Of a stretch of 64,000 nt of DNA, positions 6,170 through 12,685 are shown one piece after another. A model generated the notes under the pieces. It made no database searches, was not told the DNA's origin, and was given only the letters and a program-made list of their open reading frames with translations. A program made the position numbers and the translations under genes. Where the stretch lies: the NCBI RefSeq assembly GCF_907163105.1, contig NZ_OU015321.1:1674001-1738000 (forward strand). Reading direction: 5' to 3'. Within the stretch, counting starts at the first letter, position 1, and the number at the start of each line of letters is the position of its first letter. This DNA is from Cloacibacterium caeni (GTDB taxonomy: Bacteria; Bacteroidota; Bacteroidia; Flavobacteriales; Weeksellaceae).

Positions 6170-6559
6170 ATGGAAAATCGAGAGAAGACAGTAGAAAAGC
6201 GTACACAACAAGATTACACAATGGCTTTTAAATTAGGTATTGTAAGCCGTGTAGAAAAGGGCGAATTCACTTACAAACAGGCACAACAACATTACGGTAT
6301 CCAAGGTAGAAGCACCGTTTTGGTTTGGCTCAGAAAATATGGTAATTTAGATTGGAGCAAACCCACCATTCATACCATGTTACAATCCAAAGAAACACCC
6401 GCCGAAAAGATTAAAAGATTAGAGAAAGAATTAGCTGATGAGAAACTGAAAACCAAAGTTCTCAATATGATGATTGATATCTCCGACAAGCAATACGGCA
6501 CACAGATCCGAAAAAAGTTTACGCCCAAACAGTCAGACAACTCCAAGAAAAAGGATTGA
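6170..6559 (+). CDS. IS3-family transposase OrfA (DNA-binding subunit)
   Basis: A 129-residue protein. An N-terminal helix-turn-helix (about residues 12-55, with TYKQAQQHYGIQGRSTVLVW) binds the IS ends. A leucine-zipper-like helix follows (about 85-105, with KIKRLEKELADEKLKTKVL), as in other IS3 OrfA proteins. The stop TGA at 6557 overlaps the putative orfB TTG start. Residues 1-116 are shared with the OrfAB fusion made by -1 frameshifting. Confidence 0.92.
   Translation: MENREKTVEKRTQQDYTMAFKLGIVSRVEKGEFTYKQAQQHYGIQGRSTVLVWLRKYGNLDWSKPTIHTMLQSKETPAEKIKRLEKELADEKLKTKVLNMMIDISDKQYGTQIRKKFTPKQSDNSKKKD
6511..6517 (+). other. Programmed -1 frameshift site A AAA AAG
   Basis: The heptamer lies in the correct zero-frame phase (codons AAA 6512-6514, AAG 6515-6517). 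Shifting -1 here turns RKKFTPKQ of OrfA into RKKVYAQTVRQLQEKG, which joins smoothly to OrfB. The fused transposase would be about 410 residues. This is the usual way IS3 elements make active transposase. Confidence 0.8.
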
Positions 6560-7401
6560 GTTTATCCAAAATCTGCAGATTGTTTGGGATAAGCAGACAA
6601 GCCATTTACCAGCAGCGCCAAAGATTATGTGTTCGGGAAAAAGAATTGGAGAAAGTTAAACAATTCGTTGAGGAGATTCGTTTAGAACAGCCCAGAATAG
6701 GAACAAGAAAACTTTATTATTTGCTTAAAAATAAGTTCAAGCTTGAAAAGATAAAAATAGGCAGAGATGCGCTGTTCAATTATTTACGAAGAGAAAACCT
6801 GCTTATTTATCCTAAGAAAAGATATACAAGAACAACTTTCTCCAAACACTGGCTCAGAAAACACCCCAACCTTTTGAAAACGACTTGCCTAAAAAGAAAA
6901 GAACAGGTATTTGTAAGCGATATCACTTATATAAAAACCAAAACGAATGTCTGTTATTTATCTTTGGTTACGGATGCTTACAGCAGAAAAATAATGGGTT
7001 ACGAATTAAGTGAAAATATGAATGCTGAAAATGTAGTCAAAGCTCTGAAAATGGCCGTTAAAAACAGAACAACACATCTTCCGCTTATTCATCACTCAGA
7101 CAGGGGATTGCAATATTGCTCAGAAGTGTATCAGAAAGTACTTGTTGAAAACAAAATAAAACCCTCAATGACAGATGGCTATGATTGTTATCAAAATGCT
7201 TTGGCAGAAAGAATAAACGGAATATTGAAGCAGGAATTTTTAATTTATAAATGCAAAAACATTCAGGATTTAAAACAAATGGTTAAAGAAAGTATTTATA
7301 TTTACAACAACAAAAGACCACATCTTAGTCTGAAGATGAAAACCCCGGAAACAATCCACAAAAAATCCGGAAAATCAATATCTTCCGGATTGGTATTTTA
7401 A
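6556..7401 (+). CDS. IS3-family transposase OrfB (DDE catalytic part)
   Basis: A 281-residue reading from a TTG codon; the frame is open back to 6478, and in vivo it is probably made as the OrfAB fusion from the frameshift at 6511-6517. After an HTH_21-like region (ICRLFGISRQAIYQQ) comes the rve integrase core. The DDE triad is visible: Asp in FVSDITYI, Asp in HHSDRGLQY and Glu in NALAERINGILKQE. No internal stop or missing residue is seen, so catalytic competence is likely. Confidence 0.92.
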   Translation: MSLSKICRLFGISRQAIYQQRQRLCVREKELEKVKQFVEEIRLEQPRIGTRKLYYLLKNKFKLEKIKIGRDALFNYLRRENLLIYPKKRYTRTTFSKHWLRKHPNLLKTTCLKRKEQVFVSDITYIKTKTNVCYLSLVTDAYSRKIMGYELSENMNAENVVKALKMAVKNRTTHLPLIHHSDRGLQYCSEVYQKVLVENKIKPSMTDGYDCYQNALAERINGILKQEFLIYKCKNIQDLKQMVKESIYIYNNKRPHLSLKMKTPETIHKKSGKSISSGLVF

Positions 7402-7644: not shown

Positions 7645-8298
7645 TTAATAAGCCGCTGTAAATCTTTGTTTCACAAACTGATTATTTTCTAATTCGTCTA
7701 CCAAAGCTACCGCTACATCTTCTACAGAAAGTACACTTCTTCCCTCTTCATCAAAAACAGGATTTTCTAGCGCCGTTCTGTAAGTTCCTTTTCTTACACC
7801 CGCTGTTCCTTGGTGCATTTCTATGGCTGGAGAAAAGAAAGTCCAATCTAGATTCTCATTCTTTTTAATAATTTCTAAATATTGTCTGGCTGCTTCTGCG
7901 CCTGGTTTAATCTCCGCTGGAAATTCTGGAGTATCTATTAATTGAAGGTTTTCAGCAATATATAAACTTCCTGCTCCACCAACGGTAATAAATCTTTTTA
8001 CACCAGATTCTTCTACCGCTTTTTCGATGCTAGTAGCACCTTTCAAGAAATCTTCAAAAATATTAGGATTCGTCCAACCTGGATTAAATGCACTAATCAC
8101 CGCATCATTTCCCTTTAATATTTCTGATAATTCAGTTGTATTGTAAATATCTGCAGTTACTGCTTTTACATTTTCTGATTCTTCGATTTTAGAAGTATTT
8201 CTAGCCAAAGCATTTACAAAATATCCTCTATTTGCTAATTCTTTTACTACTTGAGTGCCTACAAAACCTGTAGCGCCTATTACTGCTATTTTTTTCAT
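7645..8298 (-). CDS. NAD(P)H-binding oxidoreductase (atypical SDR, NmrA/YwnB-like)
   Basis: A 217-residue atypical short-chain dehydrogenase. The N-terminal nucleotide-binding motif VIGATGFVGTQV is clear, and the segment VGGAGSLYI near residue 105 replaces the classical active site, as in NmrA/BVR-B-like proteins. These proteins often sense or use NAD(P)H during redox or electrophile stress. The gene lies directly downstream of an Rrf2 regulator, and both share a 19-bp palindromic operator, so it is almost certainly the regulator's target. B. subtilis ywnA/ywnB is a similar pair. Confidence 0.82.
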   Translation of the reverse strand: MKKIAVIGATGFVGTQVVKELANRGYFVNALARNTSKIEESENVKAVTADIYNTTELSEILKGNDAVISAFNPGWTNPNIFEDFLKGATSIEKAVEESGVKRFITVGGAGSLYIAENLQLIDTPEFPAEIKPGAEAARQYLEIIKKNENLDWTFFSPAIEMHQGTAGVRKGTYRTALENPVFDEEGRSVLSVEDVAVALVDELENNQFVKQRFTAAY

Positions 8299-8315: not shown

Positions 8316-8334
8316 TGTAATAATTTTTGTTACA
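8316..8334. promoter_or_regulatory. Putative Rrf2 operator, site 2
   Basis: TGTAATAATTTTTGTTACA, an imperfect 19-bp palindrome located 18 bases upstream of the oxidoreductase ATG. It differs at only two central positions from the reverse complement of the site at 8793-8811. Confidence 0.72.
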
Positions 8335-8351
8335 TTTATGCTTAAAAAATT

Positions 8352-8762
8352 TTATTTGAACTGTTCTATAAAATTTTTCAATGATTTTTCTTTTAAGAAA
8401 TTCATCACTACCTCATCTGTTTCAGAAAAAAGAAGATCCAAATGCTGATTAATCACCTTCCCCACTTCACATTGAGGATTAGGATGTTGATTTTTTTTAC
8501 CTAAAACCTCTGAGTTTTTTACGGCATTGTAAATTTCGGCAATTGTAATTTGGTTGAGGTTTTTCCCTAATCTAGTGCCGCCTTCTTTACCCTTTTTGCT
8601 TTCTACCAAACCTACTTCTCTCAGTACAGAAATTTCTTTTCTAACGACTACTGGATTTACATTGATGCTCCCAGCTAACCAATCAGAAGTATGCCATTCT
8701 TCTGGTTTAGAACCAAGAATAGTCATAATATGAAGCGCTGTGGAAAATCGAGTATTGTTCAT
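8352..8762 (-). CDS. Rrf2-family transcriptional regulator
   Basis: A 136-residue winged-helix repressor. The DNA-binding region includes WLAGSINVNPVVVRKEISVL and the wing KKGKEGGTRLGK. Only one Cys (NPQCEVG, near residue 103) is present where IscR or NsrR carry three Fe-S ligands, so it is likely a thiol- or ligand-sensing member like YwnA/HypR rather than an Fe-S sensor. It precedes the oxidoreductase on the same strand with a 53-base gap. A palindrome over its own promoter implies autorepression. Confidence 0.85.
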   Translation of the reverse strand: MNNTRFSTALHIMTILGSKPEEWHTSDWLAGSINVNPVVVRKEISVLREVGLVESKKGKEGGTRLGKNLNQITIAEIYNAVKNSEVLGKKNQHPNPQCEVGKVINQHLDLLFSETDEVVMNFLKEKSLKNFIEQFK

Positions 8763-8770
8763 TTCTGATG

Positions 8771-8800
8771 CAAATATATAAAAATTTTTAATTGTAACAA
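8771..8800 (-). promoter_or_regulatory. Promoter of the Rrf2 regulator
   Basis: On the minus strand, -7 box TATATTTG at 8771-8778 and TTG at 8798-8800, spaced 19 bp. The leader is about 8 bases. The -33 element lies inside the operator 8793-8811, so bound repressor would block it. Confidence 0.7.
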
Positions 8801-8811
8801 ATTTTATTACA
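8793..8811. promoter_or_regulatory. Putative Rrf2 operator, site 1
   Basis: TGTAACAAATTTTATTACA, with inverted arms TGTAA..AA / TT..TTACA. It overlaps the -33 element of the regulator's own promoter and closely matches the site upstream of the oxidoreductase. Confidence 0.72.
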
Positions 8812-8879: not shown

Positions 8880-9242
8880 TCAGTTTTTAGATTTTAAATC
8901 TGAAAACTCTTTTTTTGCTTTAAAAACAGGTTGTACTTTTTTAACAATAATATCTTTGTTCAACTGAAATTCTGCACTTTGTTTTATATCCAAAGAAGAT
9001 GCTCCAATAGAAATTTTATACGTTCCAGCTTCGGCAATCCAAGAAGATTGCAATGTAACGAAAGAAGCCAAATCTTCTGGTTTTAATTCCATTGTAACAA
9101 TTTCGCTTTCGCCAGGTTTTAACTCTTTTGTTTTGGCAAAAGCCTTAAGTTCTGCATTCGGTTTATCTACCAATTTATGAGGTGCAAAAAGGTATAATTC
9201 TACAATTTCTTTTCCTGAAACTTTTTTTTTGGAATAATTATT
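8880..9242 (-). pseudogene. C-terminal remnant of a GH3 beta-glucosidase (BglX-like)
   Basis: About 121 codons without a credible start, open from a stop at 9243-9245. The protein matches the end of family 3 glycoside hydrolases: VSGKEIVELYLFAP, KPNAELKAF, LKPGESEIVTMEL, and a tail with YKISIGASSLDIKQ. This is only the fibronectin-III-like terminal domain; the two catalytic domains (about 600 residues) are absent. The upstream edge lies 18 bases from the end of an AraC gene. I infer a deletion, possibly at the acquisition of the AraC/AKR cassette. Confidence 0.8.
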
Positions 9243-9260
9243 TTATTAATATTTAACAAA

Positions 9261-10181
9261 TTAATTAAAAGATTGTTTATATTCCAAAGGCGTTAAATTA
9301 GTTTTTTTCTTAAATAATTTATTAAATGATTGTGGAAATTCAAAACCTAATTGATATGCAATTTCACTAACAGACAGATTTGAAGTTGATAATAATTCTT
9401 TTGCTTTTTCAATTAGTTTTTCGTGTATATGCTGTTGTGCAGTAAGTCCAGTTAAATTTTTTAATAAATCACTTAAATAAATTGGTGATAAATTAAGTTG
9501 GTCAGAAATATATTGTACTGTTGGTAATTGTGTTTGTTCTATTTCAAAATAATTGTTCAATATTTCCTCCATTTTAGACAAAGTATCGTTACTTATTTTT
9601 TTTCGCGTGAGGAATTGTCGGTTATAATATCTGTCAATATGTACTAATAGCAATTCAATATTTGCAATTAAAACATCTTGACTAAATTTATCTGTATTGT
9701 TAGCGCATTCTTGTTCAATTGATTTGAAAAGGTTTAAAACAATTTCTTCTTCTTTATCAGAAAGAAACAATGCTTTATTAGTTGAATAAGAAAAAAAACT
9801 GTAGTTATGGATAGTTTTAGCTAAAGGATAACCTTGAAGAAAATCTGGATGAAAAATCAATTTCCGTCCTATTAATTTTATGTTTTCAATTTTTTCAATA
9901 CTAATAATTTGTTTAGGAGCTGTTGTTACTAATACACCATCGTCAAAATCAAAATCAGTTTGCCCATATTTTAACTTAGATGTCATTCCTCTTTTTATAG
10001 AAATACCATACAAATTATTACTATAGTGTTTCCAGAAGTTTGCATTCAATAAAAAATCAGTTTCTTCTAGTCTTGTTACACTTATTAAAGGATGTGATGG
10101 CCTTTGTAATCCACACAACTGATGATATTGGGATACTGTTTTTATTTTATTAATATCTTTACTTTCACTCATATTTTTCAT
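9261..10181 (-). CDS. AraC-family transcriptional regulator
   Basis: A 306-residue activator with an N-terminal cupin-like sensing domain and two C-terminal helix-turn-helix motifs (about residues 225-300, with YISDQLNLSPIYLSDLLKN and VSEIAYQLGFEFPQSFNKLF). It is the last gene of a four-gene minus-strand operon with an NTF2-like protein and two aldo-keto reductases. Direct repeats GTATCCAAAAT upstream of the operon are the likely binding site. The inducer is unknown. An alternative start three codons in (MSESK) is possible. Confidence 0.88.
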   Translation of the reverse strand: MKNMSESKDINKIKTVSQYHQLCGLQRPSHPLISVTRLEETDFLLNANFWKHYSNNLYGISIKRGMTSKLKYGQTDFDFDDGVLVTTAPKQIISIEKIENIKLIGRKLIFHPDFLQGYPLAKTIHNYSFFSYSTNKALFLSDKEEEIVLNLFKSIEQECANNTDKFSQDVLIANIELLLVHIDRYYNRQFLTRKKISNDTLSKMEEILNNYFEIEQTQLPTVQYISDQLNLSPIYLSDLLKNLTGLTAQQHIHEKLIEKAKELLSTSNLSVSEIAYQLGFEFPQSFNKLFKKKTNLTPLEYKQSFN

Positions 10182-10191
10182 ATTTTTAAAG

Positions 10192-10671
10192 CTAATCAGT
10201 GATGTGATTGTTGTTATATTTAACAGGTCTTACAAGCCGTGAAAAAGTAAGTGAAGCCATTTTCCATTTTCCTTTGGTTTTTATATAAACTTCTGTCACC
10301 ATCAAAGGATTTATAACTTCATTCCCGCCAACAACAGCTATTAAATCTATATCATTTAGCAAGATAGCGGTATTTCCAAATATGTTTATAGTTACATTGT
10401 AAATTTCTACTTTTTTGTACCAAATATTTTCACTTTCTATGGTTGTTAACTCTTCAGATTTTCCCCAAGTTCCGCCCATATGAATAAACATTGATTTATC
10501 ATCAAACAATTTCTCCAATAAATCTACATTTTTTTCTGCCATCCACTGCCATTTTTGTTTTGATAGATTAATAATTTTTTCTTGTTTTAAAGAATATTTA
10601 ACATTCTGTTGTGCAAAAGTGACTATTGTACCTACAAATATTAAAAATAATCCTATTATAAACGCTTTCAT
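10192..10671 (-). CDS. Secreted SnoaL/DUF4440-like (NTF2 fold) protein
   Basis: A 159-residue protein with a cleavable signal peptide (hydrophobic residues 4-20, cleavage near TFAQQ). The mature part has the NTF2-like pattern: a helix with KWQWMAEKNVDLLEKLFDDKSMFIHMGG, then beta strands ending KTKGKWKMASLTFSRL. Such proteins are small cone-shaped binding or lyase domains. It sits 10 bases upstream of the AraC start within the cassette, between a Tat-exported AKR and the regulator. The substrate is unknown. Confidence 0.72.
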   Translation of the reverse strand: MKAFIIGLFLIFVGTIVTFAQQNVKYSLKQEKIINLSKQKWQWMAEKNVDLLEKLFDDKSMFIHMGGTWGKSEELTTIESENIWYKKVEIYNVTINIFGNTAILLNDIDLIAVVGGNEVINPLMVTEVYIKTKGKWKMASLTFSRLVRPVKYNNNHITD

Positions 10672-10702
10672 TTTGATTAATATTTGGTTTATTATTTGAA
10701 TT

Positions 10703-12685
<1,983 letters not shown>

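What the first reader, a model, noticed from the sequence alone, without database searches (positions are those of the whole stretch)
8316..8811. Matched 19-bp operators for an Rrf2 regulator and its oxidoreductase target
TGTAACAAATTTTATTACA covers the -33 element of the Rrf2 gene. The near-identical TGTAATAATTTTTGTTACA lies 18 bases before the oxidoreductase ATG. Two sites of the same length differing at two central bases define a likely binding motif for a regulator with only one Cys.
Basis: partly seen in the sequence, partly recalled or inferred. Interest (0 to 1): 0.5.

Follow-up and report, generated by a model that had tools for sequence, protein, structure and literature searches.

The report
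Operators of a quinone-sensing repressor operon
Two near-identical 19-letter DNA sites flank a one-cysteine regulator gene and precede its partner enzyme gene; both are kept in related bacteria and match a switch, known from other bacteria, that turns on an enzyme against reactive quinones.

Summary
The sites at 8793-8811 and 8316-8334 are the only TGTAA-N9-TTACA sites in the window, and the only two in the 2.72 Mb genome that fit TGTAAYA-N5-TRTTACA. The first covers the -33 element of the Rrf2 gene's promoter; the second lies in the gap before the oxidoreductase gene. Among 64 distinct genomes examined (own included), the first site is exact in 62 and the second in 55. In two other families the upstream operator lies just behind the -7 element instead, which fits repression.

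The system is already described in Firmicutes: the regulator is closest to B. subtilis YwnA, the enzyme to YwnB. S. pneumoniae SifR binds TGTAA-N9-TTACA, leaves DNA when quinones alkylate one cysteine, and controls the quinone reductase YwnB (PMC9218516). Here Cys98 sits at the same helix cap. This is a Bacteroidota member of a known kind.

New details: the second operator has no recognisable promoter (0 of 55) yet sits 16-19 bp behind the rrf2 stop with near-fixed asymmetry; three genomes carry another oxidoreductase in ywnB's place; 23 of 23 examined genomes of one sister genus add a DsbA-like target.

The parts
8793..8811 (-). Operator 1, minus strand TGTAATAAAATTTGTTACA, over the -33 element of the rrf2 promoter
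   Evidence: exact core in 62 of 64 distinct genomes
8798..8801 (-). -33 element TTTG inside operator 1
   Evidence: sequence, 19 bp before the -7 element; that TTG/TTTG is the -33 consensus is recalled
8771..8778 (-). -7 element TATATTTG of the rrf2 promoter (consensus TAnnTTTG)
   Evidence: sequence; TAnnTTTG follows operator 1 in 58 of 62 genomes; consensus from PMC9723704 passages
8352..8762 (-). Rrf2-family repressor, YwnA/SifR-like, 136 aa, single Cys98 (codon 8469-8471)
   Evidence: PF02082 2.1e-28; best PDB relatives YwnA 1xd7 2.3e-21 and 1ylf 3.6e-21; profile 9.3e-33; model pLDDT 90.1 with helix 99-124 starting right after Cys98
8316..8334 (-). Operator 2, minus strand TGTAACAAAAATTATTACA, in the rrf2-ywnB gap, 17 bp after the rrf2 stop and 17 bp before the ywnB ATG
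   Evidence: exact core in 55 of 64 distinct genomes, in those 55 always 16-19 bp after the stop
7645..8298 (-). YwnB-like NAD(P)H-binding oxidoreductase (predicted quinone reductase), 217 aa
   Evidence: PF13460 9.8e-29; PDB 3dhn 1.2e-56, 4r01 2.1e-32; 4R01 is S. pneumoniae YwnB (PMC9218516)

Best explanation
An autoregulated two-gene operon, rrf2-ywnB. The reduced Rrf2 dimer binds operator 1, covers the -33 element and represses its own promoter, which also feeds ywnB by read-through. It also binds operator 2 in the intergenic gap and holds back ywnB a second time. Quinones or similar electrophiles alkylate Cys98 at the cap of the dimerisation helix, the repressor leaves the DNA, and YwnB reduces the quinone, closing the loop. 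Shown here: the sites, their conservation, the promoter overlap, the gene pair, the cysteine and its position. Inferred from SifR: DNA binding, quinone sensing, derepression and YwnB activity. How operator 2 acts (roadblock or a non-standard promoter) is open.
For: Operator 1 is exact in 62 of 64 genomes and followed by TAnnTTTG in 58 of 62; operator 2 is exact in 55 of 64. In 3 of 64 genomes (L064, L066, L067) and in 13 of 14 loci of two other families the -7 element instead lies directly before, or overlaps by a base or two, the upstream operator, so that the operator lies between -7 and the start codon: both placements suit a repressor. The extended motif occurs only at this locus in 6 of 7 genus members and 0 times in G010, where neither rrf2 (E up to 1e-12) nor ywnB (E up to 1e-15) was found. 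In a wider set it occurs at least once in 16 of 16 genomes with rrf2 and in 3 of 16 without; those 3 (L092, L104, L110) lie inside or at the edge of unrelated reading frames. Three ywnB-like genes in genomes without an rrf2 match have no exact core in the fetched locus (L081-L083; L083 is only 37% identical). The motif equals SifR's TGTAA-N9-TTACA, and SifR binds the ywnB operator with Ka 3.2e8 per M (PMC9218516). In L049, L074 and L075, where no ywnB was found, another NAD(P)H-binding-like protein stands in its place; the L075 copy is PF13460 and closest to E. coli YtfG (2zcu, 7.6e-91; its role as quinone oxidoreductase QOR2 is recalled). B. subtilis ywnA and ywnB rise 4.6-6 log2 under allicin (PMC6943732 passage).
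Against: No binding or expression data exist for this organism here. The signature HxxPNPxC quoted for the SifR/YwnA sub-cluster is met in 0 of 64; NPxC is kept in 60 of 64. Only 49 of 64 proteins have exactly one Cys, though the Cys98 position is kept in 27 of 27 aligned. Four plasmid-borne distant homologues lack an exact site upstream and none has ywnB annotated next to it. In two other families operator 2 is exact in only 5 of 14, and five genomes here (L063-L067) lack it though their gaps run from 16 to about 80 bp. Operator 2 lacks any TAnnTTTG (0 of 55), so its effect on ywnB is not explained by simple promoter blocking.
Confidence: 0.8

Rival explanations
1. HypR/SaiR-like two-cysteine disulfide sensor of HOCl or disulfide stress, with the same operator.
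For: NCBIfam's best hit is HypR (60.4 bits); the published HypR operator has the same core; a DsbA-like thiol protein joins the regulon in 23 of 23 examined g20 genomes.
Against: Score far below the HypR cut-off of 180. The window protein has one Cys, and 49 of 64 relatives have exactly one, so a disulfide within one chain is impossible there. A mixed disulfide or a Cys98-Cys98 link between subunits remains possible.
Confidence: 0.12
2. Fe-S cluster sensor (NsrR, IscR or RirA type) of NO, iron or redox state.
For: Same Pfam family; the fold matches IscR and NsrR at lower rank.
Against: One Cys cannot give a three-Cys ligand set; IscR, RirA and NsrR models score 26 to 36 bits against cut-offs of 182 to 275. 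The genome has two other Rrf2 proteins that do carry a Cys trio (L078, L079).
Confidence: 0.02
3. The two palindromes are chance AT-rich repeats.
For: The bare core is no commoner than its reversed control in the genome (11 against 11).
Against: Conserved at the same places in 62 and 55 of 64 genomes against about 0.1% in shuffled flanks.
Confidence: 0.01
4. Rrf2 activates rather than represses.
For: An operator over a -33 element could in principle host an activator.
Against: In other lineages the same operator lies between the -7 element and the start codon, where binding should block transcription.
Confidence: 0.05

Closest known systems
SifR of Streptococcus pneumoniae (PMC9218516: abstract, passages, sections 4 and 10 read)
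   Same: Single conserved Cys at the cap of helix 5; 19-bp TGTAA-N9-TTACA operator; YwnB quinone reductase as target.
   Different: SifR is not next to ywnB and also controls catE, yhdA, a ferric reductase gene and piuBCDA; here the regulator is linked to ywnB and has one operator at its own promoter and one in the gap. HxxPNPxC is not kept.
ywnA-ywnB operon of Bacillus subtilis (1XD7)
   Same: Same gene pair (PMC9218516); closest solved structure by sequence.
   Different: The operators of B. subtilis were not examined here; here the promoter is of the Bacteroidota -33/-7 type.
HypR of Staphylococcus aureus (Rrf2 type)
   Same: Same operator core; best NCBIfam model.
   Different: Two redox Cys and merA as target; score below cut-off.
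IscR / NsrR / RsrR / CymR
   Same: Rrf2 fold.
   Different: Fe-S ligands, or cysteine metabolism for CymR; much weaker sequence similarity.

Membership tests
Rrf2 family | Score above curated cut-offs | tested here: met
   Pfam PF02082 99.5 bits against 30. The NCBIfam superfamily model TIGR00738 was below its cut-off, 56.6 against 73.3.
Monothiol YwnA/SifR-type Rrf2 repressors | One conserved Cys at the N-cap of helix 5 | tested here: met
   Cys98 invariant in 27 of 27; model helix starts at residue 99.
Monothiol YwnA/SifR-type Rrf2 repressors | Closest solved relatives are YwnA-type proteins | tested here: met
   Profile: 1xd7 9.3e-33, 1ylf 5.2e-29, then 3k69 3.8e-14, the rest 1.5e-5 or weaker.
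SifR/YwnA sub-cluster (SSN cluster 6) | HxxPNPxC motif | tested here: not met
   0 of 64; NPxC in 60 of 64. The network analysis itself was not run.
SifR/HypR-type operators | 19-bp TGTAA-N9-TTACA upstream of targets | tested here: met
SifR-type regulators | DNA release on quinone adduction of the Cys | not testable with these tools
   Needs purified protein.
YwnB quinone reductases | Sequence relationship to SpYwnB | tested here: met
   4r01 2.1e-32 over residues 3-214; activity not tested.
HypR (NF041852) | Score above cut-off and two redox Cys | tested here: not met
   60.4 against 180; one Cys.
Fe-S Rrf2 regulators (IscR, NsrR, RirA) | Three conserved Cys ligands | tested here: not met
   One Cys.

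The most novel reading that the evidence does not exclude
Operator 2 is a promoterless operator: the repressor bound right behind its own gene acts as a removable roadblock to read-through, so regulator and enzyme on one transcript are switched at different thresholds. Its fixed 16-19 bp distance to the rrf2 stop, variable distance to ywnB, strict C6/A14 asymmetry (mirror image of operator 1) and lack of a -7 element would fit.
Probability: 0.3. Interest if true: 0.5.

Novelty: new member of a known kind. Interest (0 to 1): 0.3.

Why it matters
It carries the SifR/YwnA quinone-response switch into Bacteroidota with a motif specific enough to look for regulons by sequence, and points to a second, promoterless operator as a testable case of control between two genes of one operon. 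The searches made (listings judged by title and abstract start) showed no paper characterising this switch in Bacteroidota; most subscription journals are not held.

Tried and rejected
Other regulon members in this genome: the third-best site (2088431, L003) lies inside a 318-aa ORF that looks like a glycosyltransferase by eye. The genome has nine further bare-core sites; eight were looked at: seven lie inside ORFs and one (L186) 7 bp before a reading frame. By eye two of the nine (735210, 1106503) have the Y and R bases; both lie inside ORFs.

DNA looping between the operators: spacing runs from 467 to 487 bp in 53 genomes, with modes at 482 and 477, so no fixed helical phase; not supported.

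Promoter at operator 2 (58 rows): at 11-18 bp behind the site no perfect TAnnTTTG on either strand; one mismatch in 2 of 58 (sense) and 7 of 58 (antisense). Anywhere from -20 to +60 on the sense strand the best is one mismatch in 21 of 58.

Plasmid homologues (Lactiplantibacillus, Haloferax, Ewingella, Rhizobium; four of 320 records): no exact operator upstream in 4 of 4 (Ewingella 9 of 10 bases), no annotated ywnB neighbour; the Lactiplantibacillus one is followed by another NADP-dependent oxidoreductase.

DsbA-like gene: the window's own copy (L151) has at best 7 of 10 core bases upstream, so it is not a target here; g20 genomes G020 (9 of 10, no -7) and G043 (7 of 10) lack the site too.

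Extra matches of the extended motif outside this locus: G062 (L097) lies inside a reading frame; those in G009, G108 and G127 were not looked at.

L059 has a broken rrf2 and counts as lacking site 2 because its reading frame ends early; both operators are in place.

Full report
What is there. On the minus strand lies rrf2 (8762-8352, 136 aa) followed by an oxidoreductase gene (8298-7645, 217 aa), 53 bp apart. Operator 1 (8793-8811) contains a TTTG that fits a -33 element (recalled consensus); 19 bp further is TATATTTG, fitting the -7 consensus TAnnTTTG of flavobacteria (PMC9723704, passages), and the ATG follows 8 bp later. Operator 2 (8316-8334) lies in the gap, 17 bp from each gene. The quoted strings differ at three positions; operator 2 is close to the mirror image of operator 1, from which it then differs at two central bases.

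Which organism. The window is 1674001-1738000 of a 2.72 Mb single-contig genome. A genome of the same genus (G080) has a contig of the same length, 496009, as Cloacibacterium normanense IMET F, so the host is probably a Cloacibacterium.

Beyond chance. A consensus made from the sites gives 6 rows in the window against 1.02 expected, four of them the two sites on both strands. The bare core is at background in the whole genome, 11 against 11 for its reversed control; TGTAAYA-N5-TRTTACA fits twice, both here, control 0. In six of seven genus members the extended form occurs only at this locus (in two of them only one of the two sites fits it) and it is absent from G010, in which neither gene was found. 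In a mixed set of 32 genomes it occurs in 16 of 16 with rrf2 and 3 of 16 without.

Conservation. rrf2 homologues were found in 203 of 296 family genomes (E up to 1e-12) and in 18 of 247 sampled across the phylum (E up to 1e-20), so the gene is common in the family and patchy beyond. I examined 67 loci: the 30 best-scoring, 30 that I chose for diversity and seven of nine named loci. Removing three more duplicates leaves 64 distinct genomes, own included. Operator 1 is exact in 62; the two misses (L057, L062) have 9 of 10 core bases. Operator 2 is exact in 55. Of the nine without it, L059 has a broken rrf2 with the site in place; L058, L060 and L061 have only 4 bp between the genes; L063-L067 lack it despite gaps of 16 to about 80 bp. 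Dinucleotide shuffles of the flanks gave the core in 16 and 9 of 13400. Of 17 lineages that I picked as representatives, 17 have operator 1 and 15 operator 2 (the cores there are identical by selection). Flanking columns are mostly 40-80% conserved, but a T tract 9-12 bp before operator 2 and TAA just before it are mostly 87-100%. The genomes are related, so counts are not independent events.

Promoter geometry. TAnnTTTG follows operator 1 in 58 of 62 genomes; in three (L064, L066, L067) it precedes it; L049 has neither. In 14 loci of two further families operator 1 is exact in 11, has 9 of 10 core bases in 2, and is missing in L167, which also lacks ywnB; in the other 13 the -7 element lies directly before the operator or overlaps it by a base or two, with the operator about 20 bp before the start codon, and ywnB follows on the same strand. 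Operator 2 there is exact in 5 of 14, has 9 of 10 in 8 and 8 of 10 in one. So the site sits at -33 in some lineages and behind -7 in others while staying with the same genes, as expected of a repressor. After operator 2, TAnnTTTG is found in 0 of 55. Operator 2 stays 16-19 bp behind the rrf2 stop in all 55, while its distance to the second gene runs from 11 to 63 bp. Positions 6 and 14 are C/A in 53 of 55 at operator 2 and T/G in 47 of 62 at operator 1. At operator 1 the G completes the TTTG; at operator 2 the reason for the strict C/A is unknown.

The regulator. Pfam gives Rrf2 (99.5 bits). The nearest solved proteins are B. subtilis YwnA and B. cereus BC1842; Fe-S and CymR types are far weaker. 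An AlphaFold2 model from 27 sequences (pLDDT 90.1) starts its long helix at residue 99, right after Cys98; its best Foldseek matches are 1ylf, 3k69 and 1xd7. Cys98 is invariant in the 27 aligned sequences. Forty-nine of 64 proteins have exactly one Cys. HxxPNPxC, the signature of the SifR/YwnA sub-cluster, is found in none of the 64, NPxC in 60; so it is a monothiol YwnA-like protein, but by that motif not a member of that sub-cluster.

The target. The oxidoreductase belongs with YwnB: it matches pneumococcal YwnB (4r01) at 2.1e-32 and 3dhn at 1.2e-56. A YwnB homologue is in 61 of 64 loci. In the other three (L049, L074, L075) the next gene encodes another NAD(P)H-binding-like protein; the Sphingobacterium faecium copy is PF13460 and closest to E. 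coli YtfG, 2zcu, 7.6e-91. That YtfG is quinone oxidoreductase 2 is recalled. Both operators are kept there, so an enzyme that may do the same job stands under the same switch.

Wider regulon. In 23 of 23 examined genomes of the sister genus g20 (probably Chryseobacterium, inferred; picked because their Rrf2 is closest) a third exact core with TAnnTTTG 14-15 bp behind it lies upstream of a DsbA-family gene (PF01323). Two further g20 genomes (G020, G043) and the five own-genus genomes with a related gene lack it; other g20 genomes were not examined. In the window's genome only the two operators of this locus are credible.

Mechanism and comparison. SifR binds TGTAA-N9-TTACA, reacts with quinones at one Cys and leaves the DNA; YwnB reduces quinones; [quoted passage not shown] B. 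subtilis ywnA and ywnB are strongly induced by allicin (PMC6943732, passage), so thiol-reactive compounds beyond quinones may be sensed. The most likely reading is an autoregulated, electrophile-induced rrf2-ywnB operon. Binding, inducer and enzyme activity are inferred from relatives and not shown here.

Noticed in passing
window 6170-7401 (+): Two-frame insertion sequence (HTH protein plus rve integrase core; IS3-like by recall) just downstream of ywnB.
   Followed up: no
window 8880-9173 (-): Isolated Fn3-like domain (PF14310) from a TTG start; looks like the tail of a lost gene. In four of six genus loci a tRNA-Met gene lies about 110-480 bp upstream of rrf2, in L007 (own) and L012 none.
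   Followed up: partly
window 9261-12685 (-): AraC-type regulator, DUF4440 protein and two aldo/keto reductases in a row: a second reductase cluster beside the operon.
   Followed up: no
L096:1501-2446 and 22 other g20 genomes: Same operator core plus -7 element upstream of a DsbA-family gene in 23 of 23 examined g20 genomes.
   Followed up: yes
L049, L074, L075: Another NAD(P)H-binding-like oxidoreductase (YtfG-like for L075) stands in ywnB's place under the same two operators.
   Followed up: partly
L059: rrf2 interrupted by a stop in one g20 genome (G216) while both operators are in place.
   Followed up: no
window 8334-8335 and site 2 of relatives: Operator 2 is preceded by A, giving ATG TAA (start-stop) on the sense strand; the base is A in 80% of 15 lineages. 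Possibly chance.
   Followed up: no
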